A stretch of DNA of 64,000 bases from Psychroserpens sp. NJDZ02. GTDB lineage: Bacteria; Bacteroidota; Bacteroidia; Flavobacteriales; Flavobacteriaceae. The first letter of the stretch is position 1; the number at the start of each line of letters is the position of its first letter. The position numbers and the translations under genes are program-made. The notes under the pieces were generated by a model. It was not told the DNA's origin. It made no database searches and worked only from the letters and a program-made list of their open reading frames with translations. Shown one piece after another: positions 7,823-23,181 of this stretch. The DNA lies in assembly GCF_004843725.1 (NCBI RefSeq), contig NZ_CP039451.1, forward strand, positions 1,920,501 to 1,984,500, given 5' to 3'.

Positions 7823-9099
7823 TAGTACTAGTTTCAACATTAACGATTGTTAGTTGTAAAGAGGAAAAAAAAGAACCATTAGAAATCGTTTCGGTAATAG
7901 AGCCTGTGGAGCTTTATGAATTTGGTTTTAAGTTGGACGATTATGTTGTAAAACGGGATACTATCAGAAAAGGAGATAGTTTTGGAGAGATTTTGCAACG
8001 CAATCAAATAGATTATTCTAAAATATATCAAATAGCAGAACAAACTAAAGATAGTTTTGATATTAGGCGTTTACAAGTAGGTAAACCTTATACGTTGTTG
8101 TGTTCTAATGATTCTCTGCAACAGCCAAAATGTTTTATATATCAACCGTCTAAAACAGACTACGTTGTTATAAATTTTCAAGATTCTATTCATGCTTATT
8201 CTGATTCAAAACCAATAAAGTTTGTAGAAAAAGAAGTGTCTGGTGTTATCGAGTCTAATATATCAGAAGCATTTGCAAAACAAGGTAAAAGTGTATTGTT
8301 AGCTTATAAAATGTCAGATATTTACGCTTGGACTATAGATTTTTCTCGACTTCAAAAAAAGGATAACTTTAAGGTGGTTTACACCGAAAAATATATTGAT
8401 GATAGTATCTATGCGGGGATTGATAATATAAAAGCAGCCTATTTTCAGCATAGTGGAGAAGATTTTTATGCTTTCGAATTTGAGACAGATACTGTAAATG
8501 GGTTAAAAGATTATTTTACGGAAGATGCCAAAAATCTGCGTCGTGCCTTTTTAAAAGCGCCAGTAGAATATAAACGTATTTCATCTAGATATAATTTAAA
8601 TCGTCGGATTGCTTTATATGGTAATCGTGTGCGTCCTCACAAAGGGACGGATTTTGCAGCCGGTATAGGAACACCAATTAGAGCCACTGCAAACGGAACA
8701 GTTATTCAGTCTCGTTACAGTAAGTCTGCGGGTAATTTTGTAGCGGTAAAGCATAACAGTATTTACACTACTAAATATTTTCATATGCAAAAAAGAAACG
8801 CCAAAGTTGGAGACTTTGTAAGACAAGGCGATATAATTGGTTATGTGGGGATGACAGGTAATACTTCTGGTCCTCATGTGTGTTATCGTTTTTGGAAAAA
8901 TGGAAAAGAAGTGGATCCTTTTAAGCAAAAATTGCCAGAAGCAGAGCCTATTTCTGATAGTTTAAAAACAAAGTATTTGGAGTTTATAAAACCGTTGAAA
9001 ACACAATTAGACGCTATTGATTTTATATTACCGATAGAAGAGGAGCAGATTTTAGATGTTCAAACCATCACAGAAAACTCAATTACATATACTAAATAA
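7780..9099 (+). CDS. M23-family metallopeptidase lipoprotein
   Basis: This is a predicted membrane-anchored peptidoglycan hydrolase or its regulator. I chose the ATG at 7780 over an upstream one at 7726 because it places a short lipoprotein signal peptide at the N-terminus ([15 protein letters not shown], lipobox Cys26). The protein is then 439 residues. A LysM/OapA-like region ([15 protein letters not shown]) precedes the C-terminal M23 domain. There the first zinc motif HKGTD is intact (His287, Asp291), but the usual H-x-H motif reads His366-Val-Cys368. The gene overlaps kynA by 43 bases and its TAA shares one base with the pgi ATG, so the three are likely one operon. Enzymatic activity is uncertain because of the Cys. 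Confidence 0.85.
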
Positions 9100-10742
9100 T
9101 GGCATTACCATCAATCAACCCAACAAGTACAAAAGCTTGGAAAAAATTAGAAGCACATTTTGAAATTGCAAAAGGTTTAAAAATGAAAGATTTATTTGCT
9201 CAGAATACTGAAAGAGCAAATCAAATGACTATTAAGTGGGAAGATTTTTATGTTGATTATTCAAAAAACAGAATAACCTCAGAAACTATTACATTGCTTT
9301 TAGAGTTAGCAGAAGAGACTAAGTTGAAAGAAGCTATTCAGGCACAATTTTCTGGACAAGTTATCAATAAAACAGAAGGTAGAGAGGTGTTACATACGGC
9401 TTTACGTGCTAAAGCAACAGATGTTATTGTAGTAGATGGAAAAAATGTAATGCCTGAGATTTTTGAGGTGAAACAAAAAATTGAAGATTTTTCTAACCAA
9501 GTCATTTCAGGACATTTAAAAGGATATACAAATAAAGTCTTTACTGATGTTGTAAATATAGGTATTGGAGGTAGTGATTTAGGACCAGCGATGGTAGTGG
9601 AGTCGCTTCAGTTTTATAAAAATCACCTAACAACTCATTTTGTAAGTAATATTGATGGGGATCATGTTAACGAGGTTTTAAAAAAACTAAATCCTGAAAC
9701 AACGTTGTTTGTGATCGTTTCAAAAACATTTACAACACAAGAGACATTATCTAATGCTAATACTATTAGAACCTGGTTTTTAAAGCATGCTAATCAGGAA
9801 GATGTGGCAAAGCATTTTGTCGCTGTATCTACTAATGAAGAAAAAGTAAAGGACTTTGGAATAAATGAAAATAACATCTTTCCGATGTGGAATTGGGTTG
9901 GTGGCCGTTTTTCACTTTGGAGTGCTGTAGGATTGACTATTAGTTTATCTGTAGGTTACGAAAATTTCGATTCGCTTTTAGAAGGGGCCAATAAAATGGA
10001 TACCCATTTTAAAACAGCAGATTTTGATCAAAATATTCCAGTTGTTTTGGCATTATTAAGTGTTTGGTATAATAATTTTTTCAAGGCAGAAAGTGAGGCA
10101 GTAATACCTTATACCCAATATTTAACGCAGTTTGCAACATATTTGCAACAAGGGATAATGGAGAGTAATGGTAAAAGTGTGGATCGTAATGGAGTGCCCG
10201 TAAATTATCAGACAGGAACATTAATCTGGGGAGAGCCAGGTTCAAATTCGCAACATGCTTTTTTTCAGTTAATACATCAAGGAACTAAGTTGATTCCTGC
10301 AGATTTTATAGGTTTCGCACAATCATTGTATGGTGATCATGATCACCAAGATAAATTGATGTCCAATTATTTTGCCCAGACGGAAGCTTTGTTAAACGGA
10401 AAAACAAAAGAAGAGGTTGAGGCAGAATTTCGTGGTCAAAAGGTTTCAGAAGAAAAAATAAAAGATCTAACACCGTTTAAGGTTTTTGAAGGTAATAAAC
10501 CGACAAATACAATCTTCATAAAAAAACTAACTCCAGAAAGTTTAGGAAAATTAATAGCCATGTACGAACATAAAATATTTGTACAAGGTGTTATTTGGAA
10601 TATCTACAGTTATGATCAATTTGGAGTCGAATTGGGTAAGCAATTAGCCAATAAAATCTTAAAAGAATTTGATGCGCCCGACTTTACTAATCATGATGCT
10701 TCCACTTTAAATTTGTTAGAATTATATAAAAAATTAAGGTAA
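9099..10742 (+). CDS. pgi: Glucose-6-phosphate isomerase
   Basis: This enzyme interconverts glucose-6-phosphate and fructose-6-phosphate in glycolysis and gluconeogenesis. The 547-residue length is that of the large eukaryote/gamma-proteobacterial type. Signature blocks are [34 protein letters not shown] (phosphate binding), [18 protein letters not shown], and the C-terminal catalytic block [20 protein letters not shown]. Its ATG overlaps the stop of the M23 gene (TAATG), which indicates coupled translation. No terminator is obvious in the short space before the next gene's promoter. Assignment is secure. Confidence 0.96.
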
Positions 10743-10830
10743 CTTATGCTAATTCTGCATAATATTTTTATTTTTAGTATATTATTGTAATTTTATATTT
10801 ATTTTTTTTACTTTCGTTTTTGTGCATATG

Positions 10831-10874
10831 TTAACATTAAGTTAATATTACATCTGTATTTAGTCGTATTTTTG
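10831..10874 (+). promoter_or_regulatory. Promoter and TTAAC-box operator of TonB receptor A
   Basis: A Bacteroidetes-type -7 element TATTTTTG lies at 10867-10874. The region where a -33 box would sit holds TTAACATTAAGTTAATATT from 10831. This reads either as a direct repeat with an 11-base period (TTAAC, TTAAT) or as a palindrome TTAAC-N5-GTTAA. Receptor B has the same element at the same spacing (15776-15819), which argues for one shared activator. An OmpR/PhoB-type regulator would fit the 11-base period, but that is inference. Confidence 0.65.
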
Positions 10875-10910
10875 CACAAATTTGAAACTAACTAATCTTA
10901 ATTATTTACA

Positions 10911-13445
10911 ATGAAAAACACAATTAAAGTTATGTTTTTTGCAGTGACATTAATGTTTTCTGCATTTACAATGGCTCAAAGTACTATTACTGGAACAGTG
11001 GTGGACTCTGACACAAAAATGCCTTTATTAGGAGTTAACATTATTGAATCAGGGACTTCTAATGGAACATCTTCCGATTTTGACGGACAGTTTTCGCTAA
11101 CAACTAAGTCAAGTACAACTACAGTTGTTTTGTCTTATGTTGGTTTCATAGACCAAACGGTGGAAATAAGTGGAAATAAAGATTTAGGAGAGGTCGTATT
11201 ACTGTCTAACCAAGTTGGTTTAGATGAAATAATGATTATTGCTTCTGTCGCTGTTGATAGAAAGACACCAGTTGCGGTCTCTACAATTAGAGCAAAGGAT
11301 ATTGAATTAAAATTAGGGACTCAAGAATTTCCGGAAATTTTAAAATCTACTCCAGGTGTCTACGTAACAAAACAAGGTGGGGGTTACGGTGATAGTAGAA
11401 TAAACCTTAGAGGGTTTAATTCTGAAAATGTTGCCGTAATGATTAATGGTGTTCCCGTGAACGATATGGAAAACGGAGCTGTTTATTGGAGTAACTGGGC
11501 TGGTTTAGGTGATGTAACGTCTAGCATGCAGGTTCAAAGAGGTCTAGGGGCTTCAAAAGTAGCAGTAGCTTCAGTAGGAGGAACAATAAATATTTTAACC
11601 AAAACAACAGATGCAGAAGAAGGAGGTAGCTTTGGAGCTAGTATTGCTAATGATGGTTATTTTAAATATGGGATGACATATTCTACTGGGTTAAACGATA
11701 AAGGTTTTGCCGCAACAGTAAGTGCTTCAAAAATTACAGGAGATGGTTATGTAGACGGGACAGAATTTTCAGGATACAATTATTTTCTTAATTTATCACA
11801 ACAATTAAATGACGCACATAGATTATCATTTACAGCCTTTGGTTCTCAACAAGAACATGGTCAAAGATATAACCGTTCTACTATTGGTGAGCTTCAAGAT
11901 ACAGATTCAGGACCTCAAAAGGCGAATAGAGATTGGGGTTATAAAAATGGTGAAGTGTACCACCAATCTTATAACTTTTATCATAAGCCACAAATGTCTA
12001 TTAATCATTTATGGACTATAGATGATGATTCTGCATTATCAACAGCAGTTTACGCTTCTTTCGGTTCTGGAGGAGGACGAAGAGATGAAGGTTCTAAGAT
12101 AGGGTCTGACGATTACAGAATTGGAAGTGCAGGTTTACAACCTATAGATTTTGATAAAGTAGTTGCGGAGAATCAGTCAACTGGAGCTTATGGTTCTACT
12201 GATATTATTTCATCGTCTAGAAACTCGCATGAATGGTATGGTTTATTATCAACTTACAAGAAGGTAATTAATGATGAACTTACAATTTCTGGTGGTTTAG
12301 ATGCGCGTTCTTATGTTGGGTCACATTGGTATCAAGTAGATGACTTATTAGGAGGTCAATTTTTCTTAGATAATGAAACGGATACTTTTGCTTATGGACA
12401 AGCTTTAAAAGTTGGAGATAGGTACAATAAAGACTATGATGGTCTTGTTCAGAGATACGGATTATTTGCACAAGCTGAATACCAAGTTACTGAAAAATTA
12501 AACTTATTTATTGCTACAGATGTTTCTAATAGTAATTATAAGAAAAGAGAATACATGAATAATACCATAATTGGAAGCAGAGAATCTGAATCTGTTAACT
12601 TTATTGGTTATGGAACTAAAGGTGGTGGTAACTATAATTTAGATTCAAATAACAATGTGTTTGTTAACGTAGGGTATTTTTCAAAAGCACCATTTTTAAC
12701 TAATGTGTTTTTAGATGAAGACACACTTGCAGCTAATGAGGATGCAGTAAACGAAAAAGTATTTAGTGCAGAATTAGGATATGGTTTCCGTGGAGAAAAA
12801 TTTAGCGCTAACATAAATGTTTATTATACACAATGGCTAGATAAATCAACTAGTGGACAAGTAGGAAATAATGATGATCCATTATTTTATAACTTACAAG
12901 GGGTAGATGCACTACATCAAGGTGTAGAACTTGACTTTAAATATAAAGCAAACGATAATATTACCTTAACAGGTATGGCTTCTTTAGGGGATTGGCAATG
13001 GAAAAGTAATGTGTCATCAATTATTAGAAATCAAGCAGGAGATGAAGTAGACGTTGTAGATGTTATTGCTGATGGCATAAAAGTAGGAGATGCGGCTCAA
13101 ACAACATTTGCTTTAGGTTTAGATTATAAGTTAGGACAAAAATCTAATATTTATTTAGATTATAATTTTGCAGGTGATAACTATGCGTCTTATGATGTAA
13201 CAAATAGATCTAGTGCTGATCTTCCTGATGTTTGGGAAGTGCCGGATTTTGGATTATTTGATGTTGGTATGAGGCATGGTTTTGCAGTGGGATCATTTGA
13301 TGCTACTTTAATAGGTAAGGTTAATAATGTTTTTAATACAGAGTATATTTCAGATGCTAATGATTTAGATGGTACTTCAACAGCAGCATTAGTTTATTAT
13401 GGTGCAGGACGAACATATAGCGTAGCATTAAAAGTTAATTTTTAA
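10911..13445 (+). CDS. TonB-dependent receptor A with carboxypeptidase-like regulatory domain
   Basis: This 844-residue outer-membrane active transporter has a signal peptide ending AQ at about 22-23, then a carboxypeptidase-like beta domain (about 24-105, TITGTVVDSDTKMPLLGVNI), a plug (about 120-230, with LRGFNSENVAVMINGVPVND and QRGLGASKVAVASVGGTINI) and a 22-strand-type barrel ending in Phe (VALKVNF). It lacks the SusC-type LKDASAAAIYG block and resembles iron/siderophore-type receptors more than SusC. The next gene, 12 bases downstream, is a lipoprotein, probably its surface partner. Receptor B at 15857 is a paralogue with an almost base-identical first 75 nucleotides. Substrate unknown; nucleic acid or phosphate-containing ligands are suggested only by the neighbours. 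Confidence 0.9.
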   Translation: MKNTIKVMFFAVTLMFSAFTMAQSTITGTVVDSDTKMPLLGVNIIESGTSNGTSSDFDGQFSLTTKSSTTTVVLSYVGFIDQTVEISGNKDLGEVVLLSNQVGLDEIMIIASVAVDRKTPVAVSTIRAKDIELKLGTQEFPEILKSTPGVYVTKQGGGYGDSRINLRGFNSENVAVMINGVPVNDMENGAVYWSNWAGLGDVTSSMQVQRGLGASKVAVASVGGTINILTKTTDAEEGGSFGASIANDGYFKYGMTYSTGLNDKGFAATVSASKITGDGYVDGTEFSGYNYFLNLSQQLNDAHRLSFTAFGSQQEHGQRYNRSTIGELQDTDSGPQKANRDWGYKNGEVYHQSYNFYHKPQMSINHLWTIDDDSALSTAVYASFGSGGGRRDEGSKIGSDDYRIGSAGLQPIDFDKVVAENQSTGAYGSTDIISSSRNSHEWYGLLSTYKKVINDELTISGGLDARSYVGSHWYQVDDLLGGQFFLDNETDTFAYGQALKVGDRYNKDYDGLVQRYGLFAQAEYQVTEKLNLFIATDVSNSNYKKREYMNNTIIGSRESESVNFIGYGTKGGGNYNLDSNNNVFVNVGYFSKAPFLTNVFLDEDTLAANEDAVNEKVFSAELGYGFRGEKFSANINVYYTQWLDKSTSGQVGNNDDPLFYNLQGVDALHQGVELDFKYKANDNITLTGMASLGDWQWKSNVSSIIRNQAGDEVDVVDVIADGIKVGDAAQTTFALGLDYKLGQKSNIYLDYNFAGDNYASYDVTNRSSADLPDVWEVPDFGLFDVGMRHGFAVGSFDATLIGKVNNVFNTEYISDANDLDGTSTAALVYYGAGRTYSVALKVNF

Positions 13446-13457
13446 AAAAATATTAAA

Positions 13458-15269
13458 ATGAAAAAAATAATTTATTGTTTAGCTGTTTTAGGGATGACCT
13501 TAGTTGGTTGTAACCCTCTTGAAGACGTTTATAACGATTTAGATGCAACAGCAGATCCTATTGTTGGTTCTGAGTCTTATATACTTACAGGTGACGATTA
13601 TGCCGAATTAGAATTAAATTTTGGTAGTTTTAGTTCTGTAGAAGATGCTCAGTCACTTATACCAGGTTTTTTATCTAATAGATACCCTTTTTGGGGGCAA
13701 GGATCATCTGTCTTAGTTGGATATGATTTATACGTGGGTAATGCTTTTGATGTTAGAGACTATAATTTTAACCAAGCTGATTATACTTTTACTGGAAGTG
13801 ATGGGTTAGGTTTTGATGCAGGAGCAACACCTGAAGATTTTTTAGCAGATATTCTTGCAGCTAATGTTACTGATCCTTCAGTAGGAGATTATCGTAGAGC
13901 AAGATATTATCAATATACTGGAGCTTTTGGTGTTGTTACACCAACAGTTTCTTTAGATGATAATTTTGATTATGGTGCTGTTTCTGGTGACTTAACAACA
14001 ACAGGTGTTGCTAATTGGGAAGCGCATTCTGGAGAAGGTTCAGGTCCAATAGGATATGATGTTTCTAGTTTGTCAATGACTGATTATCCTTCGTCTGATA
14101 TTGCAGGTTCTATGACAATTGATTCAGGAGCATCTGAAGATGTTTCAAGTTATTTTGCAGAAATAGCTACAGGAACTGTGTACGCAAGTACTTTGATAAA
14201 CTTAAGTACAGTGGGAGACGGAACTTATATGTTTCATCTTAGAGATTCTGATTTTGGTTTTGTAGCTAGAGTAGGAGCAAAGGATGACGGTGCTGGGAAT
14301 ATCTTATTTGGTGTTGGTGCTAGTTCTAGTGATTTAACTTACAGTACTACAAGTTTTGATTTAAATACAACGTATCTTCTTGTATCTTCATACAATATAA
14401 CTACAGGTGTGTCTAATTTATATGTACTATCTGCTGTCACAGCTGAAGAGCCGACGACTCCAGAAGCAACAAATACAGGAAATGCAGGTGTAGCTGTTTC
14501 TGGTATTGCAGTGCGCCAAGGGTTTGGTGGACCAACAGGGGCTTTAGATGGTATACGTGTTGCAAACACATGGTCTGCTATTATGAGTAATGATGTACTA
14601 GAAGATGAAATAGTAGGAGATAAAATAGCTTACGAAACGTATTTTGAATACACAGGTTCAGAATGGGCTCTACCTTCTGATGGTTTTTATGCGATCACTG
14701 ATGCTGATTTTGACTCTATGGGTATTGAGAGTTTTGGAAGTTCAATCTCTGCAAATGATTATTTAGTTACTTTTTTAAGTTCAAAATATCCATATGCTCA
14801 AGAGGAGGATGCTATAAATATAGCATATAATTATGAGTCAAGTTCTAGTGGCTCAGGTGCAAGAGGTAATTTATATACATTTGTAGAGGGGGCTTGGGTA
14901 GCTTATGAATCCACAATTTCTACAACACTTCAGTTTGGTTTTGATGAAGGTCTTTGGGTTCCTGATAATACAATTAGGTACACTTTAACCGCTGATGATT
15001 ACACATTAATATCTACATCTTTAGCTGGTGATTATCCAACTGCAACAAGTAGTATGATTAGTTATGGTAATATGGATAGAAGAGCTGGGAATCCTAATGA
15101 ATGGACCAACTCTATGGTGTTGGAAGCAGTAGCTGTTGTTTTAGATGTATTAGCCCCTTCTGCTGAAGAGGGTCAAAAGTATACTGTTACTATTGAGGTT
15201 TATAATGGTAGTAATACTACTGAAGATTTCTTAGTTATTAAAACTGCTGGAAATTGGGTATACCAATAG
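13458..15269 (+). CDS. Repeat-containing surface lipoprotein paired with TonB receptor A
   Basis: I do not recognise a named family. The 603-residue protein starts with a lipoprotein signal (KKIIYCLAVLGMTLVGC, Cys18) and is very acidic and Ser/Thr-rich. A module beginning (Y)xLTxDDYxxL recurs: about 40-110 (ILTGDDYAELELNFGSF), 400-480 (AITDADFDSMGIESFGSS) and 495-603 (TLTADDYTLISTSLAGDY). Between the first and second modules a beta-rich stretch (about 165-385) resembles a LamG/concanavalin-type carbohydrate or ligand-binding fold (TGVANWEAHSG ... GALDGIRVANTWSAI). It lies 12 bases after the receptor gene and before a strong terminator, so the two form an operon. It is probably a substrate-capturing partner on the cell surface. 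Receptor B has no such partner. Confidence 0.7.
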   Translation: MKKIIYCLAVLGMTLVGCNPLEDVYNDLDATADPIVGSESYILTGDDYAELELNFGSFSSVEDAQSLIPGFLSNRYPFWGQGSSVLVGYDLYVGNAFDVRDYNFNQADYTFTGSDGLGFDAGATPEDFLADILAANVTDPSVGDYRRARYYQYTGAFGVVTPTVSLDDNFDYGAVSGDLTTTGVANWEAHSGEGSGPIGYDVSSLSMTDYPSSDIAGSMTIDSGASEDVSSYFAEIATGTVYASTLINLSTVGDGTYMFHLRDSDFGFVARVGAKDDGAGNILFGVGASSSDLTYSTTSFDLNTTYLLVSSYNITTGVSNLYVLSAVTAEEPTTPEATNTGNAGVAVSGIAVRQGFGGPTGALDGIRVANTWSAIMSNDVLEDEIVGDKIAYETYFEYTGSEWALPSDGFYAITDADFDSMGIESFGSSISANDYLVTFLSSKYPYAQEEDAINIAYNYESSSSGSGARGNLYTFVEGAWVAYESTISTTLQFGFDEGLWVPDNTIRYTLTADDYTLISTSLAGDYPTATSSMISYGNMDRRAGNPNEWTNSMVLEAVAVVLDVLAPSAEEGQKYTVTIEVYNGSNTTEDFLVIKTAGNWVYQ

Positions 15270-15299
15270 TCTTATAGTTTTAAAATATTAAAGTAATTA

Positions 15300-15330
15300 A
15301 AAACCGCTTCTGTCAAGAAGCGGTTTTTTT
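15300..15330 (+). terminator. Terminator after receptor A / lipoprotein operon
   Basis: Perfect 12-base stem AAAACCGCTTCT / AGAAGCGGTTTT with a GTCA loop and a T-run. A near-identical hairpin stands after receptor B (18512-18542), and the homology continues downstream of both. Confidence 0.92.
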
Positions 15331-15380
15331 ATGCTTAATAATTACAGCGTTTTTGTCATAACTAGTTAAAAAGAAGCATT

Positions 15381-15605
15381 AAGGTGAAAATGTTGTAGGA
15401 CCTCTCTAGTGTTTTTTTCTGACGATAATTACAACTGTCAATACATTAATAAAGAGTTTTAAAAAAAAGGAGGTATTGTTTAGTAGTTTAGTCAAAATTA
15501 TCTTCGAGAGAGCTTTATTAAAGAAGTGATGAGAAATTCAGTCTCAGCTTCTAACGCAGCGGAACACCCTATTGTAATTATTTTAGTAGTCATCTTTTCA
15601 TGCTT
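15381..15605 (+). pseudogene. Decayed copy of the 141-residue membrane protein gene
   Basis: This stretch aligns base by base with the intact gene at 18592-19017. Examples are TCTAGTGTTTTTTTCTGACG against TTTAGTGTTTTTTATGATGA, GAGAGAGCTTTATTAAAGAA against GAGAGAGTTCTATAAAGGAA, and AACGCAGCGGAACACCCTAT against AATGCTGTGGAACATCCCGT. The ATG has become AAG at 15381, stop codons and frameshifts are present, and roughly 100 bases of the middle are missing. The upstream terminator and the ATGCTTAATAATTAC leader are also conserved. The gene is clearly dead. Confidence 0.88.
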
Positions 15606-15635
15606 TTACAACAAACTTGTCTTATTTTTTTTCTA

Positions 15636-15740
15636 AAGTTTATTTAGTTTCTATTTCTTTAATTAAATATATATAAGCAAGTGATCAATAAAACCTTTCT
15701 TAACCATACGACGCAATGGGTAGGCTTCAAACGATTCTTC
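15636..15740 (-). pseudogene. Remnant of the 3' end of the endonuclease/exonuclease/phosphatase gene
   Basis: It aligns with the C-terminal coding end of the intact gene at 19073-20149 (minus strand). Compare TTTCTATTTCTTTAATTAAA with TCTCGATTTCTTTGATTAAA, AAGTGATCAATAAAACC with AAGTGATCACTAAACCC, and GGTAGGCTTCAAA with GGATAGCCTTTAAA. Only about the last 35 codons are recognisable, with internal deletions. Sequence beyond it turns into the promoter of receptor B, so the old duplication junction lies near 15740-15770. Confidence 0.78.
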
Positions 15741-15775
15741 TATTATTTATTTTGTGATTTTATTTAGAACATTTC

Positions 15776-15819
15776 TTAACGTTAAGTTAATATTGGAATA
15801 ATAAATAGTCGTACTTTTG
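15776..15819 (+). promoter_or_regulatory. Promoter and TTAAC-box operator of TonB receptor B
   Basis: TTAACGTTAAGTTAATATT starts at 15776 and the -7 element TACTTTTG lies at 15812-15819. The distance from the second half-site to the -7 box is 25 bases, exactly as in receptor A. The leader from there to the ATG is also similar (TTTGCAC...TTTGAAA(C/T)TAAC). Confidence 0.65.
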
Positions 15820-15856
15820 CACGGAATTTGAAATTAACAAATCTTTATTTAAGACA

Positions 15857-18487
15857 ATGAAAAACACAATTAAAGTTATGTTTTTTGCAGTGACACTAAT
15901 GTTTTCTGCATTTACAATGGCTCAAAGTACTGTTACAGGAACAGTAATTGACGGCGAATTTAACTCAGCACTGCCAAGTGCAAGTATTGTTGAGCAAGGT
16001 ACAAGTAATGGTACAATTAGTGATTTTGATGGGACGTTTACTTTTGAAACACAGGCAAGTTCAGGTGTTCTTGTAATCTCATATGTAGGTTATGGTAAAA
16101 AAACAATCTCTTTCAGTGATAGTATTAATCTTGGTGAAGTACTTTTAACATCAGACAATTCTTTAGATGAGGTTGTTGTTGTTGGAACAGGAGTTATAGA
16201 TTTAGCAGGAGGAAGAGAAACTCCAATTGCAGTTTCTACAATTAGAGGTAAAGACATTCAGTTAAAAGCAGCAGGTAACGCTGAGTTTGGTGAAGCTTTA
16301 AAAAATACACCATCGGTTTACGTATCAAGTCAAGCCGGAGGATTTGGTGATAGTCAGATCTTTTTAAGAGGTTTTGATCAAACTAATACGGCTTACTTAT
16401 TAAATGGACAACCAATTAATGGGATGGAAGATGGGAATATGTACTGGTCAAATTGGTCTGGTATGAGTGATGTTGCTAATGCCGTACAGATTCAACGTGG
16501 ATTAGGTGCTTCAAAGTTAGCTATATCTTCAGTAGGAGGGACAGTAAACATTGTTTCTAAAACTACAGAAAATCAAGAAGGTGGTTTTGTAAGGTTTTTG
16601 GGTGGTAACGATAGCTATGCTAAAGCAACAGCGTCATACAGTTCAGGGTTAAAAGAAAGTGGATGGGCTTACACTGTATTGATAGATCATTGGCAAGCAT
16701 ACAGAAAGTACTCAGAAGGTACTGCTGGACAAGGTCAAAATTATTTATTTTCTGTTGGGTATAAGCCAAATGAGAAGCATACGCTTAACTTTTTGTTAAC
16801 AGGTGCGCCGCAATGGCACGATCAAAATTTTTCTGATGATTTAGAAAATTATGAGACATATGGTGAAAAATATAATGCAAATTCAGGATATTTAGAAGGA
16901 TCACGTTTTACAGAAAGACGTAACTATTATCACAAACCAGTAGCTAATTTAAACTGGGATTTTAATATTAAAGAAAACTTAGAATTATCAACTGTACTTT
17001 ATGCATCTTGGGGACGTGGTGGTGGAACCGGAGGTATTGGTAATGGGAGAGTACGTGATAATGCTTCAGGACTAATTGATTTTGATCAAATTGTAGAGAA
17101 TAATATTGGTTCTGCAACAGAAATAAATGGTGGGCAATATGGGACTTCTAGTGATTCTTATTTAAGAAGATCATCGGTAAATGCACATGACTGGTATGGG
17201 GTACTATCTAATTTAAGCTATGAAGCAGGTGATAACTGGTCTTTTAATGTTGGTGTTGATGGTAGAACTTATAACGGTAAACATTTTTATCAATTAGAAA
17301 ACACTTTAGGATTAGACGGGTACAATGATGCTTCTGGAACAAATAGACCGAGTGATTACTTGATTACAGAAACCTTTGAAGCAAATCCTTGGAGTGCATT
17401 ATTTGATTATGCAGATGATGACCAAAGATTTAATTACAACTATGAAGAGGTAATTAATTATGTTGGTAGTTTTGGTCAAGCCGAATATAAAAACGATAAT
17501 TTTTCTGGTTTTATTCAAGCTGCCGTTTCAACTCAATCCTATCAAAGAGAAGGATTTTTTATAGGTAATGGAAATGGTTTAGGGAAGTCCGAAAAAATAG
17601 AAAAAGGGGGTTATAATTTAAAAGGTGGTTTTGCTTATAAAATAAATGAGAACCATGCGTTTTTTGTTAATGCTGGTACCTTTTCACGTCAACCATTTTT
17701 AGACAATATTTTTTCAAATATTAGATACGAGAACACTCTAGCAGAACCTGATGTAGATAACGAAGAAATTACAAGTTTTGAAGGAGGATACAGATTTAAA
17801 GGTAAAGAATGGAGAATAAATGTAGATGTATATTCTACAGATTGGGGTAATAGATTTTTATCAACAAATGGTCCAATACAACCCGGTGCAGATGGTGTTG
17901 TAGATACTGCAGATGACGAGTTTAGTACATACAGACTTACTGATGTTACACAAAGACATAAGGGAGTAGAATTTGATTTTGAGTATAGACCAACTGCAGC
18001 TTCTTTTAGTTTTAAAGGTTACGGTTCTGTAGGAGATTGGAAGTATGATGGAGTAACACCTTATACGCTTCAAAATGATGATACTGGTGATTTTATAGTA
18101 ACTGATGGAACGGTAGATTTAACAGATGTTAAAATAGGTAATGCTCCTCAAACATCTTTTGGTGTAGGGATTAGAGTTAAGTTATTAGACGGCTTATCTG
18201 CAGATATTGATTATAACATATATGCGGATTTATACGAATTTGTTGATCCTGCAGATGTTGCTGCAACGGCTATAGCTGGTGGAACTTACCAATCTATAGG
18301 AATAGATTCATACTCATTAGCAGATGCTGGTATAACTTATAACTTCGATTTAGGATCTAATAAAATGTCTTTTAGAGGTAATATTTATAATTTGTTTAAT
18401 GAATCTTATATTAGTCAAAAAGATGCTTTTGGTTATTATTTGGGAATTGGAAGAACGTTTAACGCAAGTTTACGTTACAATTTCTAG
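15857..18487 (+). CDS. TonB-dependent receptor B with carboxypeptidase-like regulatory domain
   Basis: This 876-residue outer-membrane receptor is paralogous to receptor A. The first 24-25 residues are identical and their codons differ at about one base, while the mature parts have diverged strongly. Domains are a signal peptide (cleavage near AQ, 22-23), a carboxypeptidase-like domain (about 24-105), a plug (about 125-240, with LRGFDQTNTAYLLNGQPING and IQRGLGASKLAISSVGGTVNI) and a barrel ending in Phe (ASLRYNF). Unlike receptor A it has no lipoprotein gene behind it: a terminator follows 24 bases after the stop. It may share the receptor A lipoprotein or have lost its own. Its promoter matches that of receptor A, so co-regulation is likely. 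Substrate unknown. Confidence 0.9.
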   Translation: MKNTIKVMFFAVTLMFSAFTMAQSTVTGTVIDGEFNSALPSASIVEQGTSNGTISDFDGTFTFETQASSGVLVISYVGYGKKTISFSDSINLGEVLLTSDNSLDEVVVVGTGVIDLAGGRETPIAVSTIRGKDIQLKAAGNAEFGEALKNTPSVYVSSQAGGFGDSQIFLRGFDQTNTAYLLNGQPINGMEDGNMYWSNWSGMSDVANAVQIQRGLGASKLAISSVGGTVNIVSKTTENQEGGFVRFLGGNDSYAKATASYSSGLKESGWAYTVLIDHWQAYRKYSEGTAGQGQNYLFSVGYKPNEKHTLNFLLTGAPQWHDQNFSDDLENYETYGEKYNANSGYLEGSRFTERRNYYHKPVANLNWDFNIKENLELSTVLYASWGRGGGTGGIGNGRVRDNASGLIDFDQIVENNIGSATEINGGQYGTSSDSYLRRSSVNAHDWYGVLSNLSYEAGDNWSFNVGVDGRTYNGKHFYQLENTLGLDGYNDASGTNRPSDYLITETFEANPWSALFDYADDDQRFNYNYEEVINYVGSFGQAEYKNDNFSGFIQAAVSTQSYQREGFFIGNGNGLGKSEKIEKGGYNLKGGFAYKINENHAFFVNAGTFSRQPFLDNIFSNIRYENTLAEPDVDNEEITSFEGGYRFKGKEWRINVDVYSTDWGNRFLSTNGPIQPGADGVVDTADDEFSTYRLTDVTQRHKGVEFDFEYRPTAASFSFKGYGSVGDWKYDGVTPYTLQNDDTGDFIVTDGTVDLTDVKIGNAPQTSFGVGIRVKLLDGLSADIDYNIYADLYEFVDPADVAATAIAGGTYQSIGIDSYSLADAGITYNFDLGSNKMSFRGNIYNLFNESYISQKDAFGYYLGIGRTFNASLRYNF

Positions 18488-18511
18488 TACTATCTAACAA
18501 ATAAATTTTTT

Positions 18512-18542
18512 AAAACCGCTTCTGTAAAGAAGCGGTTTTTTT
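18512..18542 (+). terminator. Terminator after receptor B
   Basis: Stem AAAACCGCTTCT / AGAAGCGGTTTT, loop GTAA, T-run. It is the sister copy of the terminator at 15300-15330. Confidence 0.92.
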
Positions 18543-18591
18543 ATGCTTAATAATTACTACATTTGCGGTATAACTAATTAAAATAAGAATT

Positions 18592-19017
18592 ATGATAAAA
18601 ATGTTGCACTCGTATTGGGCCTATTTAGTGTTTTTTATGATGATAATTGCCACAGCAAATGCATTGATAAAGTATTTTGGTAAAAAAGAATATGAACCTT
18701 TAGATTTTCGTATTGCATTATTTACTTTAATAGTTTCTCATATTCAATTATTGTTAGGTATTGTTTTGTGGTTTTCGCAAGATTATTTTGGAGAGAGTTC
18801 TATAAAGGAAGTTATGGGGAATTCAGCATTACGTTCTAATGCTGTGGAACATCCCGTTGCAATGATTTTGGCGGTAGCTTTTATTACTATTGGTTATTCG
18901 AAACATAAAAAGAAATTAACGTCTGCAGGAAAATTGAAACCGTTGGCTATCTTTTATACTTTGGCATTTGTTCTAGTCTTAGCAAAATTACCGTGGAAGG
19001 CATGGTTTAATTTATAA
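18592..19017 (+). CDS. Four-helix membrane protein (cytochrome b-like annotation in relatives)
   Basis: The small integral membrane protein has 141 residues and four predicted helices at about 7-25, 41-63, 88-104 and 117-135. Conserved-looking polar points are LHSYWAY near the N-terminus, SHIQLLLGIVLW in helix 2 and RSNAVEHPVAMILA in helix 3. The His residues at 6, 50 and 87 could be haem ligands, and I recall homologues being labelled cytochrome B, but I cannot confirm haem binding. It is followed by a bidirectional terminator and faces the nuclease gene. A dead copy lies at 15381-15605. Confidence 0.75.
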   Translation: MIKMLHSYWAYLVFFMMIIATANALIKYFGKKEYEPLDFRIALFTLIVSHIQLLLGIVLWFSQDYFGESSIKEVMGNSALRSNAVEHPVAMILAVAFITIGYSKHKKKLTSAGKLKPLAIFYTLAFVLVLAKLPWKAWFNL

Positions 19018-19022
19018 TAAAC

Positions 19023-19050
19023 AAAAAGCGACCAATTGGTCGCTTTTTTG
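19023..19050. terminator. Bidirectional terminator between convergent genes
   Basis: AAAAAGCGACC / GGTCGCTTTTTT around an AATT centre, with A- and T-runs on both sides. It serves the membrane-protein gene (+) and the nuclease gene (-). Confidence 0.9.
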
Positions 19051-19072
19051 CGTTTTTAGAGTTTGAATTTCT

Positions 19073-20149
19073 TTATTTACTGGAAGGTTTTTTAGTCTCG
19101 ATTTCTTTGATTAAATACATATACACAGGAAAGTGATCACTAAACCCATTGGTGAAACCGCCATCTGCAAAACTGCGAAGAGGATAGCCTTTAAATCGTC
19201 CCTTTTTTGTCACTAAATAGTTTTGGTTAAAAATTCCTGCTTTGTAGTATGTCCAATTAGAATAATCTTTATTTAAAAAAGGTTGAGTCATCATAATCTG
19301 ATCAAATAAACTCCAGGCATCTCTATAAGCTGTGGTTCCTAAGCCACGTTTTTTTAACATATCTATAAATGGGTTGTAAATACCTTTAAAGTCCACTTTT
19401 TCTTTTTTTCTTTCAGCCTTTAAAACGGCTTTTACACTGGCGTTTGTTGGATTGTCATTTAAATCGCCCATAGTTATTATTTTAGCGTAAGGATTCAGGG
19501 ATTGTAAGCTATCCATTAAGTGTTTATTAAGTTTGGCGGCTGCCACACGTTTAGGTCTGCTTTTAGCCTCTCCTCCACGTCTTGACGGCCAATGGTTAAC
19601 AATAATATGTATTGTTTCTTCTTCTAGCTTTCCTGTAACTAATAATTGATCTCTAGTGTTTTGGCGCTTATGCGTGTCGCTATCATATATTTTTAGGGTA
19701 TGTGTGCTTTTGGAAATCACTTGAAATAGTGATTTTTGATACAAAAGACCTACATCTATACTTCTATTGTCTGGGCCATCAAAATGAACAATAGCATAAT
19801 CCTTGCTCAATAGTAAAGGGTCATTTACGACATCTTCTAGGACAGAAATGTTTTCAATTTCACAGACTCCTATTAATGCTGGGCTATTATTAGTAATGTC
19901 GTTTCCAATATCAGAAATTACACGTGCCATATTGTGTACTTTTTTCTTGTAGATTTTTGAACGATTAACCTTAATTTCCATCATTGGACTTGCTTCGTCA
20001 AATTTTGTAGGATCATTAATGGTGTCAAATAAATTCTCTAGATTATAGAATGCTATGGTGTGTATTCGATAATTTTTTTCTTCTTGTCCAGTAAGATTTA
20101 TATAAACTATTAATAATAGTAATGTAAGTCTATAATTTAAGTGGTTCAT
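19073..20149 (-). CDS. Exported endonuclease/exonuclease/phosphatase-family protein
   Basis: This 358-residue member of the metal-dependent DNase I-like phosphohydrolase superfamily may be a secreted nuclease or phosphodiesterase. An N-terminal hydrophobic segment (YRLTLLLLIVYINLTG) looks like a signal peptide. The catalytic signatures are all present: FYNLENLFDT, the metal-binding Glu in GVCEIENISVL, NHWPSRRGGEAKSRP, GDLNDNPTN, SLFDQIMMTQ and the catalytic SDHFPVY near the C-terminus. It is transcribed divergently from receptor C and shares a 140-base promoter region with it. With DUF5689 and TonB neighbours it could release nucleotides or phosphate from extracellular nucleic acid, but the substrate class is not fixed by the fold. 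Confidence 0.88.
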   Translation of the reverse strand: MNHLNYRLTLLLLIVYINLTGQEEKNYRIHTIAFYNLENLFDTINDPTKFDEASPMMEIKVNRSKIYKKKVHNMARVISDIGNDITNNSPALIGVCEIENISVLEDVVNDPLLLSKDYAIVHFDGPDNRSIDVGLLYQKSLFQVISKSTHTLKIYDSDTHKRQNTRDQLLVTGKLEEETIHIIVNHWPSRRGGEAKSRPKRVAAAKLNKHLMDSLQSLNPYAKIITMGDLNDNPTNASVKAVLKAERKKEKVDFKGIYNPFIDMLKKRGLGTTAYRDAWSLFDQIMMTQPFLNKDYSNWTYYKAGIFNQNYLVTKKGRFKGYPLRSFADGGFTNGFSDHFPVYMYLIKEIETKKPSSK

Positions 20150-20289: not shown

Positions 20290-23181
20290 ATGACAAGAAA
20301 TTTTTTAGTATTCGTCTTCTTGATTTTTTCAAAATTCACGCTCTTCGCTCAGGATACCGTAGTAAAAGGAAGTGTTAATGATGCTGTAACTAATCGACCT
20401 ATATCAGGAGTGATTGTAACCATAGAGGATTCCGGTTTAACAACTAAAACAGATGATTTTGGTCAATTCATCTTTCGTGAAAATATTCCATTTGGAGAAC
20501 AGGTTTTAAAAATTGAGCAAGTAGATTATACTACTAAGCGTTACCCTATAATTGTAAATAGCGGAAAAACTATCGATATACAAGATATGACTTTAGCTTA
20601 CAAATTAGGTGATAGTAAGGCTATGTATATTATTTCCATTTCAGATGAGCAATTAAATAGTGAAGATGATGGATTGACTAGTAATGTTTCGGGGTTATTG
20701 CAAGCTTCTAAAGATGCTTTTTTAACTGCGGCTGCATATGATTTTAGTGCAACTTTTTTTAGGCCAAGAGGTTTGGATAATGCTAATGGTAAAGTTTTAA
20801 TTAATGGTCTTGAACTAAATAAACAAAATACAGGTCGACCACAATGGGGGAATTGGGGTGGTATTAATGATGTGCAGCGTAACCAAGATTTTTCGATGGG
20901 AATGTCTTCTAACGATTATAATTTTGGAGATCTAGCTGGAACAAATAATATTATTATGAGAGCCTCTAAATACCGTAATGGTGGACGTTTGTCTATGGCA
21001 TCAGCCAATAGAAGTTACCAAAGTCGTTTGATGCTTAGTTATAATTCTGGTTTGATGAAAAACAATTGGGCTTATAGTGTGTTAGCTTCCAGAAGGTTTG
21101 GAAATGGAGGTTATGTGGAGGGAACATTGTATGACGCTAATTCCTTTACGGCTTCAGTAGAAAAACAAATAAATGCCGAGCATAGTCTTAATTTTACAGC
21201 TATTTACGCTCAAAATAGAAGAGGTAAAGGAACCGCTTTAACGGATGAAATTTTTGATTTAAAAGGAAGTCAGTATAATCCTTTTTGGGGAATTCAAAAT
21301 GGAGAAATAAGAAACTCTAGAATACGAGAAATAGAAGAACCAATTATAATGTTAAACCACTATTGGAGTATTTCGGAAAACGCATCAATAAATACAAATA
21401 TTGGATATCAATTCGGGACCTCTGGAAATACAAGAGTAGATAATGGCGGGACGCGTTTAGTAAATTTTCAAGGACAGGATAGTTACATTGGAGGTGCACG
21501 TAATACCGATCCTACGTATTACCAAAACTTACCAAGTTATTTTTTGAATGTTGACGGAGGGCCAACAGCTTATAATTATGAACAAGCTTATATAGCACAA
21601 CAAACGTTTCAAAATGATGGTCAGTTTAATTGGAATGATCTTTATATCGCTAATACAAATGCAGCAAATCAAGGGTTTAATTCAATTTATGCTATTCAAG
21701 AAGATAGAGTAGACGATAAGCAGTTAATGGCTAATATTATTTTTGATACCCAGTTAAGTGGTAACATTCGTTTAAACGCAGCAGTAAATTATAGGGATTT
21801 AAAAAGTGAAAATTTTGCGGTAGTTTCAGATTTGTTGGGAGGAACAGGTTATTTAGATGTGGATTTTTTCTCTGATGAAACAACAGAGTCTACCGATGGA
21901 ACATTAACAACAGCTCAATCGGATGTAAGAAACCCTAATAGAATAGTTACAGAAGGAGAGCGTTATAAATACAATTATAATATTGATGCTAATGTATTTA
22001 GTGCTTTTGCGCAATCTGTATTTAATTACAGTAAAGTAGACTTTTATTTAGCAGGTAATGTTTCAATAACAAATTATCAACGGGAGGGGTTTTTTGAAAA
22101 CGGCTATTTTACCGGTCATTCTTTTGGTAAAGGAGAAAAAGTTCAATTTAAAAATTTTGGAACAAAAGCAGGCGCAACTTATAAACTGTCTGGTAGGCAT
22201 ATATTGGATTTTAATGGGGCATACTTCACCAAGGCGCCTAATATTGGAAATACGTTTGCTAATGTTAGGCAGTCCAATATGCTTATTGAAGATGTGGATA
22301 GTCAAATTATTACAAGTCTAGATGCTAGTTATGTTTTTAGATCTACAATTGTAAAAACAAGGTTGACAGGGTTTTATTCTAGTTTTAAAAATGGGACAGA
22401 AACAGGATTTTATTATAGTGAAGGTGTAGGGAATAATCTAGTCCAAGAAGCGGTTACAGGGATAGAAACACAACGTATTGGAGCTGAGTTTGGTATTGAG
22501 GCGCAAGTGACACCTACGATAAAGCTAAAAGGCGCTGTTTCTGTTGGACAGTATACCTATAATAATAACCCTAATTTAACTTTTTATAGCCAAGAATTTG
22601 GCGTGGGACGTGCAGTCTTTGGTCACGGAACAACTAATCTTAAGGATTTACATATTTCTGGAGGACCAGAACAGGCAGTACAATTAGGTTTTGAGTATCG
22701 TGATCCAGGATACTGGAATGTTGGAGTTACTGCTAATCACTTCTCTAATGCGTATGTAGATGCAAGTGCAATAAAAAGAAGTGCGGCTTTTGTAACAGAT
22801 CCAGAATTATATTCCGAAACCCAGTTTCAGGAAGGTACTGCGGATGGAGCTGTTTATGTTTTAACTGGTGGTGAGATTAATAACATAGATCCAGATATTG
22901 CTAAACAATTATTACAGCAAGAAAAGTTTGATTCTTATATGTTAGTCAATATAATTGGAGGTAAATCGTGGAGAGTAGGCGATTATTTTTTAGGTTTTTT
23001 TGCTACTATAAATAACGTGCTTAATCAAGAGTATAAAACGGGTGGTTTTGAACAATCTAGGCGTGTCGATTATAGAAGTCAATTAGCGGAACAAACCAAT
23101 GCTAACGGACCTGTGTTTGGTAACCGTTATTTTTTTGGAAATGGAACCACTTATTATTTAAATGTTTATGTAAGATTTTAA
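20290..23181 (+). CDS. TonB-dependent receptor C with carboxypeptidase-like regulatory domain
   Basis: This 963-residue outer-membrane receptor has a signal peptide (LVFVFLIFSKFTLFAQ), a carboxypeptidase-like domain (about 22-100, VVKGSVNDAVTNRPISGVIV), a plug (about 110-240, with FFRPRGLDNANGKVLINGLE and MGMSSNDYNFGDLAGTNNII) and a long barrel ending YLNVYVRF. It is distinct in sequence from receptors A and B. It is followed by the DUF5689 lipoprotein gene with a 32-base gap and is divergent from the nuclease gene. That gene set suggests one uptake unit: the nuclease cleaves, the lipoprotein binds, the receptor imports. This is inferred from arrangement only. Confidence 0.9.
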   Translation: MTRNFLVFVFLIFSKFTLFAQDTVVKGSVNDAVTNRPISGVIVTIEDSGLTTKTDDFGQFIFRENIPFGEQVLKIEQVDYTTKRYPIIVNSGKTIDIQDMTLAYKLGDSKAMYIISISDEQLNSEDDGLTSNVSGLLQASKDAFLTAAAYDFSATFFRPRGLDNANGKVLINGLELNKQNTGRPQWGNWGGINDVQRNQDFSMGMSSNDYNFGDLAGTNNIIMRASKYRNGGRLSMASANRSYQSRLMLSYNSGLMKNNWAYSVLASRRFGNGGYVEGTLYDANSFTASVEKQINAEHSLNFTAIYAQNRRGKGTALTDEIFDLKGSQYNPFWGIQNGEIRNSRIREIEEPIIMLNHYWSISENASINTNIGYQFGTSGNTRVDNGGTRLVNFQGQDSYIGGARNTDPTYYQNLPSYFLNVDGGPTAYNYEQAYIAQQTFQNDGQFNWNDLYIANTNAANQGFNSIYAIQEDRVDDKQLMANIIFDTQLSGNIRLNAAVNYRDLKSENFAVVSDLLGGTGYLDVDFFSDETTESTDGTLTTAQSDVRNPNRIVTEGERYKYNYNIDANVFSAFAQSVFNYSKVDFYLAGNVSITNYQREGFFENGYFTGHSFGKGEKVQFKNFGTKAGATYKLSGRHILDFNGAYFTKAPNIGNTFANVRQSNMLIEDVDSQIITSLDASYVFRSTIVKTRLTGFYSSFKNGTETGFYYSEGVGNNLVQEAVTGIETQRIGAEFGIEAQVTPTIKLKGAVSVGQYTYNNNPNLTFYSQEFGVGRAVFGHGTTNLKDLHISGGPEQAVQLGFEYRDPGYWNVGVTANHFSNAYVDASAIKRSAAFVTDPELYSETQFQEGTADGAVYVLTGGEINNIDPDIAKQLLQQEKFDSYMLVNIIGGKSWRVGDYFLGFFATINNVLNQEYKTGGFEQSRRVDYRSQLAEQTNANGPVFGNRYFFGNGTTYYLNVYVRF

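What the first reader, a model, noticed from the sequence alone, without database searches (positions are those of the whole stretch)
15300..15770. Ruined tandem copy of the terminator, membrane-protein gene and nuclease 3' end
From the terminator onward, 15300-15740 aligns in order with 18512-19200. It holds a dead copy of the 141-residue gene (ATG to AAG, deletion of about 100 bases, frameshifts), then a dead 3' end of the nuclease gene on the other strand. The junction then runs into the receptor B promoter. So the locus grew by a tandem duplication whose repeat unit ended inside the nuclease gene. Receptor B is probably the duplicated receptor, and the lipoprotein was kept only with receptor A.
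Basis: seen in the sequence. Interest (0 to 1): 0.75.

Follow-up and report, generated by a model that had tools for sequence, protein, structure and literature searches.

The report
Duplication scar in a receptor-swapping locus
A broken leftover copy of two neighbouring genes marks the spot where a marine bacterium came to carry two different outer-membrane uptake receptors side by side, at a chromosome position where its relatives usually carry just one of several interchangeable receptors, or none.

Summary
15303-15744 is a decayed copy of terminator, m141 and nuclease 3' end (18515-19205; BLASTN 76/75/76%, E 2e-33, 2e-19, 3e-11; 0 of 500 shuffles reach the score of any of four blocks), joined at ~15745 to a promoter like receptor A's. 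A sister species (L085) has the same junction and an undeleted but also frameshifted copy. Both relics group with their own right-hand copies. So the flank duplication is real and older than that split.

That receptor B is A's duplicate fails. A (with lipoprotein) and B are two old clades (37 and 42 proteins) alternating at one slot between PGI and m141. Of 87 genomes surveyed, 34 carry B, 30 A+lipoprotein, 13 a third receptor type, 6 nothing, 3 two receptors, 1 other. Flanking genes track PGI (Spearman 0.69-0.82), slot receptors hardly (0.21). Promoter+RecB+terminator is younger between the sisters (dS 0.14) than PGI, RecA and m141 (0.50-0.64), its left edge lying near the junction. Best reading: an illegitimate flank duplication made the slot double, and recombination loaded the second place with B.

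The parts
9099..10742 (+). glucose-6-phosphate isomerase (PGI): fixed left flank of the receptor slot
   Evidence: Pfam PF00342 E 3e-216
10796..10910 (+). receptor A promoter region; TANNTTTG-type element at 10867-10874
   Evidence: 74% identical to 15744-15860; element position; the motif as the Bacteroidetes -7 element is recalled
10911..13445 (+). receptor A, SusC-like TonB-dependent receptor (844 aa); mosaic, breakpoint near nt 285-295
13458..15269 (+). lipoprotein that accompanies A-type receptors (603 aa), no Pfam or NCBIfam match
15303..15330 (+). terminator hairpin of the A unit, left copy
   Evidence: 27 of 28 bases identical to 18515-18542
15381..15600 (+). relic of the 141-aa membrane-protein gene: start codon AAG, 67-base deletion, frameshifts, 3' part lost in a second large deletion (3' limit approximate)
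15622..15744 (-). relic of the nuclease 3' end
   Evidence: 62/82 identities, E 3e-11; 45 codons in sister L085
15745..15856 (+). receptor B promoter region, starts at the duplication junction; TANNTTTG-type element at 15812-15819; left part of the young tract shared with L085
   Evidence: 103/107 identical to L085 against 326/426 in the adjoining relic
15857..18487 (+). receptor B, SusC-like TonB-dependent receptor (876 aa); first 75 nt 74/75 identical to receptor A
18515..18542 (+). terminator hairpin, right copy
18592..19017 (+). intact 141-aa membrane-protein gene (m141): fixed right flank of the slot
   Evidence: found downstream of PGI in 68 of 87 surveyed loci
19073..20149 (-). intact endonuclease/exonuclease/phosphatase-family gene
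   Evidence: PF19580 E 1.5e-107

Best explanation
15303-15744 is the scar of an old flank duplication that gave a normally single receptor slot a second place. Shown: the PGI-to-m141 slot holds different receptors in different species (A+lipoprotein, B, a third receptor type, or none), and slot receptors hardly follow the phylogeny that the flanks follow. Shown: in the ancestor of this genome and its sister, the right flank (terminator, m141, nuclease 3' end) became duplicated with a junction between the nuclease gene and a receptor promoter, and the left flank copy decayed. Inferred: the joint was illegitimate, at a short T-rich shared word (TTTTTGT in L085, TTTTGT in the window). It arose either by unequal exchange of sister chromosomes followed by overwriting of the second receptor, or in one step when a DNA piece from a B-carrying cell recombined homologously on its right and illegitimately on its left. 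Strongly suggested: promoter-RecB-terminator moved again as a cassette between the two species or from a common donor after they split. Inferred: signal-peptide end and terminator/m141 act as homology arms, and the cell now makes two receptors of different specificity from separately terminated units.
For: Relic significance. Same junction in L085. Relics with own right-hand copies, UFBoot 100 against L088. Genus of 10: 4 A only, 4 B only, 2 both. Receptor tree: A and B one clade each, SH-aLRT 100. PGI tree: at least 18 A/B changes over 71 rows; starred branches force at least 10 changes for A and 10 for B, each against all other labels. Control: PGI distances correlate with m141 0.82, Nuc 0.69, RecC 0.74, slot 0.21, in 41 genomes. 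Young tract: promoter 103/107, RecB-m141 spacer 100/104, RecB third positions 790/877, against relic 326/426, PGI-RecA spacer 127/164, PGI third positions 406/548, RecA 639/845, m141 107/142; dS RecB 0.14, PGI 0.60, RecA 0.50, m141 0.64. Mosaics at best split, 0 of 200 permutations as strong: RecA near nt 295 (80/89 left, 129/689 right match L088), RecB near nt 93 (12/14 left, 179/961 right match own RecA). Parallel: Winogradskyella L008 and L018 carry a PGI 3' fragment between two receptors.
Against: Order of events is not proven: one-step and two-step versions predict the same map. The relics are placed with L085's right copy rather than the window's (97 in one tree, 98 in the other) and the window relic's branch is about three times L085's, which a simple history does not predict; gene conversion in L085 would explain it but was not tested. 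The T-rich microhomology is weak in an AT-rich genome. The RecB signal-peptide match rests on few sites (12/14). Four of eight double-receptor loci show no detectable flank relic. Slot content is not random on the PGI tree: all six labels together need 39 changes against 46.7 shuffled (0 of 200 as low), and A alone 21 against 28.0 (1 of 500); B, the third type and empty slots are close to shuffled. The slot-PGI correlation is low but not nil (0.21, 2 of 500 permutations as high; within B alone 0.45). The PGI tree is a quick one-gene tree with 33 of 92 inner branches open.
Confidence: 0.78

Rival explanations
1. One reading: a tandem duplication of receptor A + lipoprotein + m141 + nuclease end made receptor B, which then lost its lipoprotein and diverged.
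For: Flank copy and junction are real; the A and B 5' ends share 74/75 nt (75/75 in L085).
Against: Receptors are far more diverged (55% DNA, dN 0.60) than the unconstrained relic (about 70-76%); A and B are separate family-wide clades; B alone and A+lipoprotein alone occupy the same slot in other genomes.
Confidence: 0.06
2. One-step addition: DNA from a B-carrying cell entered an A-carrying cell and integrated with homologous exchange on the right (m141/nuclease/RecC) and an illegitimate joint on the left (homology-facilitated illegitimate recombination), adding B and duplicating the flank at once.
For: Gives the observed map with no deletion; both m141 copies are of the same lineage; B cells exist in the same genus; transformation-made merodiploids are experimentally known in pneumococcus (PMC3784515, passages).
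Against: The promoter-RecB-terminator tract is younger than the relic between the sisters, so B was at least re-exchanged after the scar formed; no competence data for this organism here.
Confidence: 0.35
3. RecB, its promoter and terminator are under unusually strong constraint, so the low dS reflects slow evolution, not exchange; B has been beside A since the duplication.
For: Promoter and terminator are functional elements; no donor was identified.
Against: RecA, the same kind of gene in the same locus, has dS 0.50, and its promoter-containing spacer is 127/164 identical against 103/107; W_B against the one other B receptor tested has an ordinary dS (1.14 to L094).
Confidence: 0.1
4. The similarity is chance or low-complexity AT-rich alignment.
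For: AT-rich region with gapped alignment.
Against: 0 of 500 shuffles for each of four blocks; L085 has the same copy nearly full length.
Confidence: 0.01

Closest known systems
rag locus (RagA/RagB) of Porphyromonas gingivalis
   Same: TonB-linked SusC-type receptor with a lipoprotein; several diverged variants whose distribution does not follow the SNP phylogeny (PMC5266723, passages); conserved RagA N-terminal part with signal peptide and CarbopepD_reg_2, and proposed transfer between species (PMC11817032, passages).
   Different: Here the variation is across genera at one slot, includes receptors without the lipoprotein, a third receptor type and empty slots, and two variants side by side with a flank relic.
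Transformation-made tandem duplications (merodiploids) in Streptococcus pneumoniae
   Same: Two copies of a region side by side after recombination with incoming DNA by unequal crossing over (PMC3784515, passages).
   Different: Those span about 100-900 kb and form between incomplete IS861 copies and other repeats; here the unit is a few kb and the joint looks illegitimate. No experiment here.
FpvA pyoverdine receptor types of Pseudomonas
   Same: Diverged alternative TonB-dependent receptors at one locus (recalled; only a search listing was seen).
   Different: Tied to siderophore biosynthesis (recalled); the genes annotated around this slot are of other kinds.
SusC/SusD pairs
   Same: Receptor A is followed directly by a lipoprotein gene; receptor N-termini match TIGR04056 weakly (91-93 bits, cut-off 368).
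   Different: The lipoprotein matched no Pfam or NCBIfam family and no PDB sequence; its model is partly poor and gave no fold match at E <= 0.001.

Membership tests
Tandem-duplication scar | collinear second copy of the flank, more than chance | tested here: met
Tandem-duplication scar | novel junction joining the repeat unit's right end to its left end | tested here: met
   nuclease interior joined to receptor-promoter sequence, same in L085 apart from an 11-base length difference
Tandem-duplication scar | the copy comes from the same lineage | tested here: met
   UFBoot 100 against L088 in two trees; exact placement with L085's right copy (97 and 98) left unexplained
Receptor B as in-place duplicate of receptor A | A and B are each other's nearest relatives | tested here: not met
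rag-like receptor locus with exchanged alleles | diverged alternatives at one conserved position | tested here: met
rag-like receptor locus with exchanged alleles | alleles do not follow the phylogeny that flanking genes follow | tested here: met
   a weak phylogenetic signal remains (slot-PGI 0.21; labels 39 changes against 46.7 shuffled)
rag-like receptor locus with exchanged alleles | variation among strains of one species | not tested
   species representatives only were used
SusCD pair (receptor A + lipoprotein) | lipoprotein has a SusD fold | tested here: inconclusive
   no family match; mean pLDDT 57.6 and no Foldseek match at E <= 0.001
SusC/RagA family (TIGR04056) | score above the curated cut-off | tested here: not met
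   91-93 bits against 368 for A and B; called SusC-like only

The most novel reading that the evidence does not exclude
The position behind PGI in Flavobacteriaceae is a dedicated receptor-switching slot. Whole outer-membrane uptake units of at least three designs (A+lipoprotein, B, an OMP_b-brl_4-type barrel) or none are exchanged between species through shared ends, and double occupancy with a decaying flank copy, made from either side (m141/nuclease here, PGI in Winogradskyella), is the recurrent intermediate by which a lineage changes or widens its receptor.
Probability: 0.4. Interest if true: 0.72.

Novelty: new variant of a known kind. Interest (0 to 1): 0.56.

Why it matters
It gives a fixed, easily found chromosomal address at which uptake receptors, which are often also phage entry points (recalled), can be compared across a whole bacterial family, with largely vertically inherited genes on both sides as built-in controls. 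The scar and the young tract beside it order two events in one case and show how a cell can come to hold two alternative receptors at once.

Tried and rejected
Rejected: chance similarity; B as duplicate of A; distant-donor origin of the relic flank; another copy of A or B elsewhere in the genome as donor (with A as query and all 47 candidates scored, only A and B match at E <= 1e-50, with B as query, only 2 of 44 candidates were scored, so that call says nothing more).

Led nowhere: structure of the lipoprotein (mean pLDDT 32.2 from one sequence, 57.6 from six), its fold search (116 matches at E <= 10, 0 at E <= 0.001) and PDB sequence search (0 hits). Receptor B gave only 4 partial PDB matches. 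dS for the nuclease could not be computed. Paper searches; no listed title or abstract start named this PGI slot, but some listings were capped and the library lacks most subscription journals. Passages only were seen of PMC5266723, PMC11817032 and PMC3784515; all other papers were seen as listings.

Selections: of 148 genomes with PGI I used the 87 best-scoring (80 fetched, six, and the window), so more distant genera are missing. The 79 loci are biased to B because B was the query. The 138 PGI loci contain some genomes twice, from two collections, and where no m141 was found only 9 kb after PGI was examined. One search used the 41 surveyed A or B genomes that had all five genes. Receptor labels were set by presence of the lipoprotein; the A+B doubles (window, L085, L183) were split by hand.

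Full report
OBSERVATION. 15270-15860 was compared with 18488-19250. Three collinear BLASTN matches cover terminator plus m141 5' end (139/183), m141 middle (86/114) and nuclease 3' end (62/82). Dinucleotide shuffles never reached the observed score for the whole or for three parts (0 of 500 each). A search of the own genome found, besides the query itself, only these right-hand copies, the region before receptor A (10796-10914, matching 15744-15860) and one weak terminator-like hit. So the left part of the stretch comes from the slot's right flank and the right part resembles a receptor promoter: a duplication junction at about 15745. The start codon is AAG at 15381 and the terminator hairpins at 15303-15330 and 18515-18542 differ at one base of 28. 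Two large deletions are present, 67 bases and about 165 bases (against the sister relic).

SISTER SPECIES. G006 (L085) has receptor A 92% and receptor B 93% identical to the window's, with an m141 copy of full length and 45 codons of the nuclease 3' end between them. That copy is frameshifted too, and the junction is the same apart from an 11-base length difference just left of it. In two trees of the region both relics group with the right-hand copies of these two genomes, apart from the next relative L088 (UFBoot 100 in both). Not explained: the relics are placed with L085's right copy rather than the window's (97 in one tree, 98 in the other), and the window relic has the longer branch (0.43 against 0.14 in the first tree).

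THE SLOT. Mapping the window's proteins on relatives shows a recurring order PGI - slot - m141 - nuclease - RecC - DUF5689 protein; m141 was found downstream in 68 of 87 surveyed loci. In the genus 4 of 10 have A+lipoprotein, 4 of 10 have B, 2 of 10 both. In a PGI-anchored family survey, 148 of 149 genomes had PGI; for the 87 best-scoring the slot holds B in 34, A+lipoprotein in 30, a third receptor type of 1048-1105 aa in 13 (one blastp cluster; one tested: PF25183 OMP_b-brl_4), nothing in 6 (77-165 bases between PGI and m141), two receptors in 3, other in 1.

A AND B ARE OLD ALTERNATIVES. Receptors of the 79-member A/B cluster were labelled by whether the slot holds the lipoprotein, the three A+B doubles being split by hand. 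On their tree the 37 A and the 42 B rows are each one clade with SH-aLRT 100, so receptor type and lipoprotein go together. On a PGI tree of 95 rows the A/B labels (71 rows) need at least 18 changes; strongly supported branches alone force at least 10 for A and 10 for B, each against all other labels. B is no more clustered than shuffled labels (28 changes, shuffled mean 29.6, 157 of 500 as low), nor is the third type (12 against 12.5, 217 of 500); A is clustered (21 against 28.0, 1 of 500), and so are all six labels together (39 against 46.7, 0 of 200). Control: in 41 genomes with all five genes (21 A, 20 B), protein distances correlate with PGI at 0.82 (m141), 0.69 (nuclease) and 0.74 (RecC), but 0.21 for the slot receptor (2 of 500 permutations as high); within A it is -0.02, within B 0.45. 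So slot content keeps a weak phylogenetic signal but changes far more often than its neighbours.

MOSAICS AND THE YOUNG TRACT. The first 75 coding bases of A and B are 74/75 identical in the window and 75/75 in L085, while of the next 225 bases 124 and 121 match. Receptor A matches the sister-group genome L088 left of nt 295 (80 of 89 informative sites) and L086 to its right (L088 only 129 of 689; p 4e-41 at the best split). Receptor B matches own A left of nt 93 (12 of 14) but not right of it (179 of 961; p 1.5e-7 at the best split); 0 of 200 permutations were as strong in either. Between the window and L085, dS is 0.60 for PGI, 0.50 for RecA and 0.64 for m141, but 0.14 for RecB. Unconstrained or spacer DNA gives the same picture: relic 326/426, PGI-RecA spacer 127/164, Nuc-RecC spacer 103/140, m141-Nuc spacer 40/50, against RecB promoter 103/107 and RecB-m141 spacer 100/104; promoter against relic p 4e-7. 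Third codon positions: RecB 790/877, PGI 406/548, RecA 639/845, m141 107/142, nuclease 238/359, RecC 700/964. Identity steps up near the junction. The tract promoter-RecB-terminator is therefore younger than the scar beside it.

PARALLELS. Of 138 PGI loci examined (some genomes twice), 8 hold two receptors: the window, L085, L008, L018, L009, L076, L113, L183. Flank fragments were found in 4: m141 (and the nuclease end) in the window and L085, the PGI 3' end in Winogradskyella L008 and L018; none in the other 4. In L008 the repeat is 87.6% identical over 3432 columns. L008 and L018 may be one event.

MECHANISM. Shown: flank copy, shared junction, old A/B split, discordant slot content, young B tract. 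Inferred: an illegitimate joint at a T-rich word shared by nuclease and PGI-receptor spacer (TTTTTGT in L085, TTTTGT at the window's junction), either by unequal exchange followed by overwriting, or by one-step addition from a B-carrying cell. Merodiploids made by transformation are known experimentally (PMC3784515, passages). Homology-facilitated illegitimate recombination is recalled; one search counted the stem of that term twice in that paper, but I read no passage defining it. Function of the receptors is inferred from family only.

KNOWN SYSTEMS. The rag locus of P. gingivalis is nearest: diverged RagAB variants that do not follow the SNP phylogeny (PMC5266723, passages) and a conserved RagA N-terminus with CarbopepD_reg_2 (PMC11817032, passages). 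The slot here differs in crossing genera, in holding different kinds of receptor or none, and in the scar.

Noticed in passing
window 13699-14898: The middle of the lipoprotein gene is only 52-66% identical to L085, while its start is 87% and its end 77-84%: the middle looks swapped on its own.
   Followed up: no
window 20299-20698: The first 400 bases of RecC are 71-75% identical to L085, the rest 83-97%: a possible further mosaic end.
   Followed up: no
L086 and L087, receptor A first 315 nt: The N-terminal part of these A receptors matches the window's B rather than its A (A matched at only 28 of 93 and 28 of 92 informative sites), so the N-terminal domain seems to be exchanged across types.
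   Followed up: partly
L130, L133, L136, L152, L164, L181: Empty slots: PGI is followed by m141 after 77-165 bases.
   Followed up: partly
L008 9290-9824; L018 12773-13225: 3' ends of PGI between two receptors in Winogradskyella, the mirror image of the window's scar.
   Followed up: partly
L095, L097, L107, L108, L110 and others: A second nuclease-like gene (35-41% identical) lies further downstream, beyond the DUF5689 gene, in many genera.
   Followed up: no
L104, L107, L110, L128, L131, L138, L140, L147, L177: A-type slots with an extra ORF of 449-544 aa; in L115, L121, L126, L137, L170 one of 241-267 aa.
   Followed up: no
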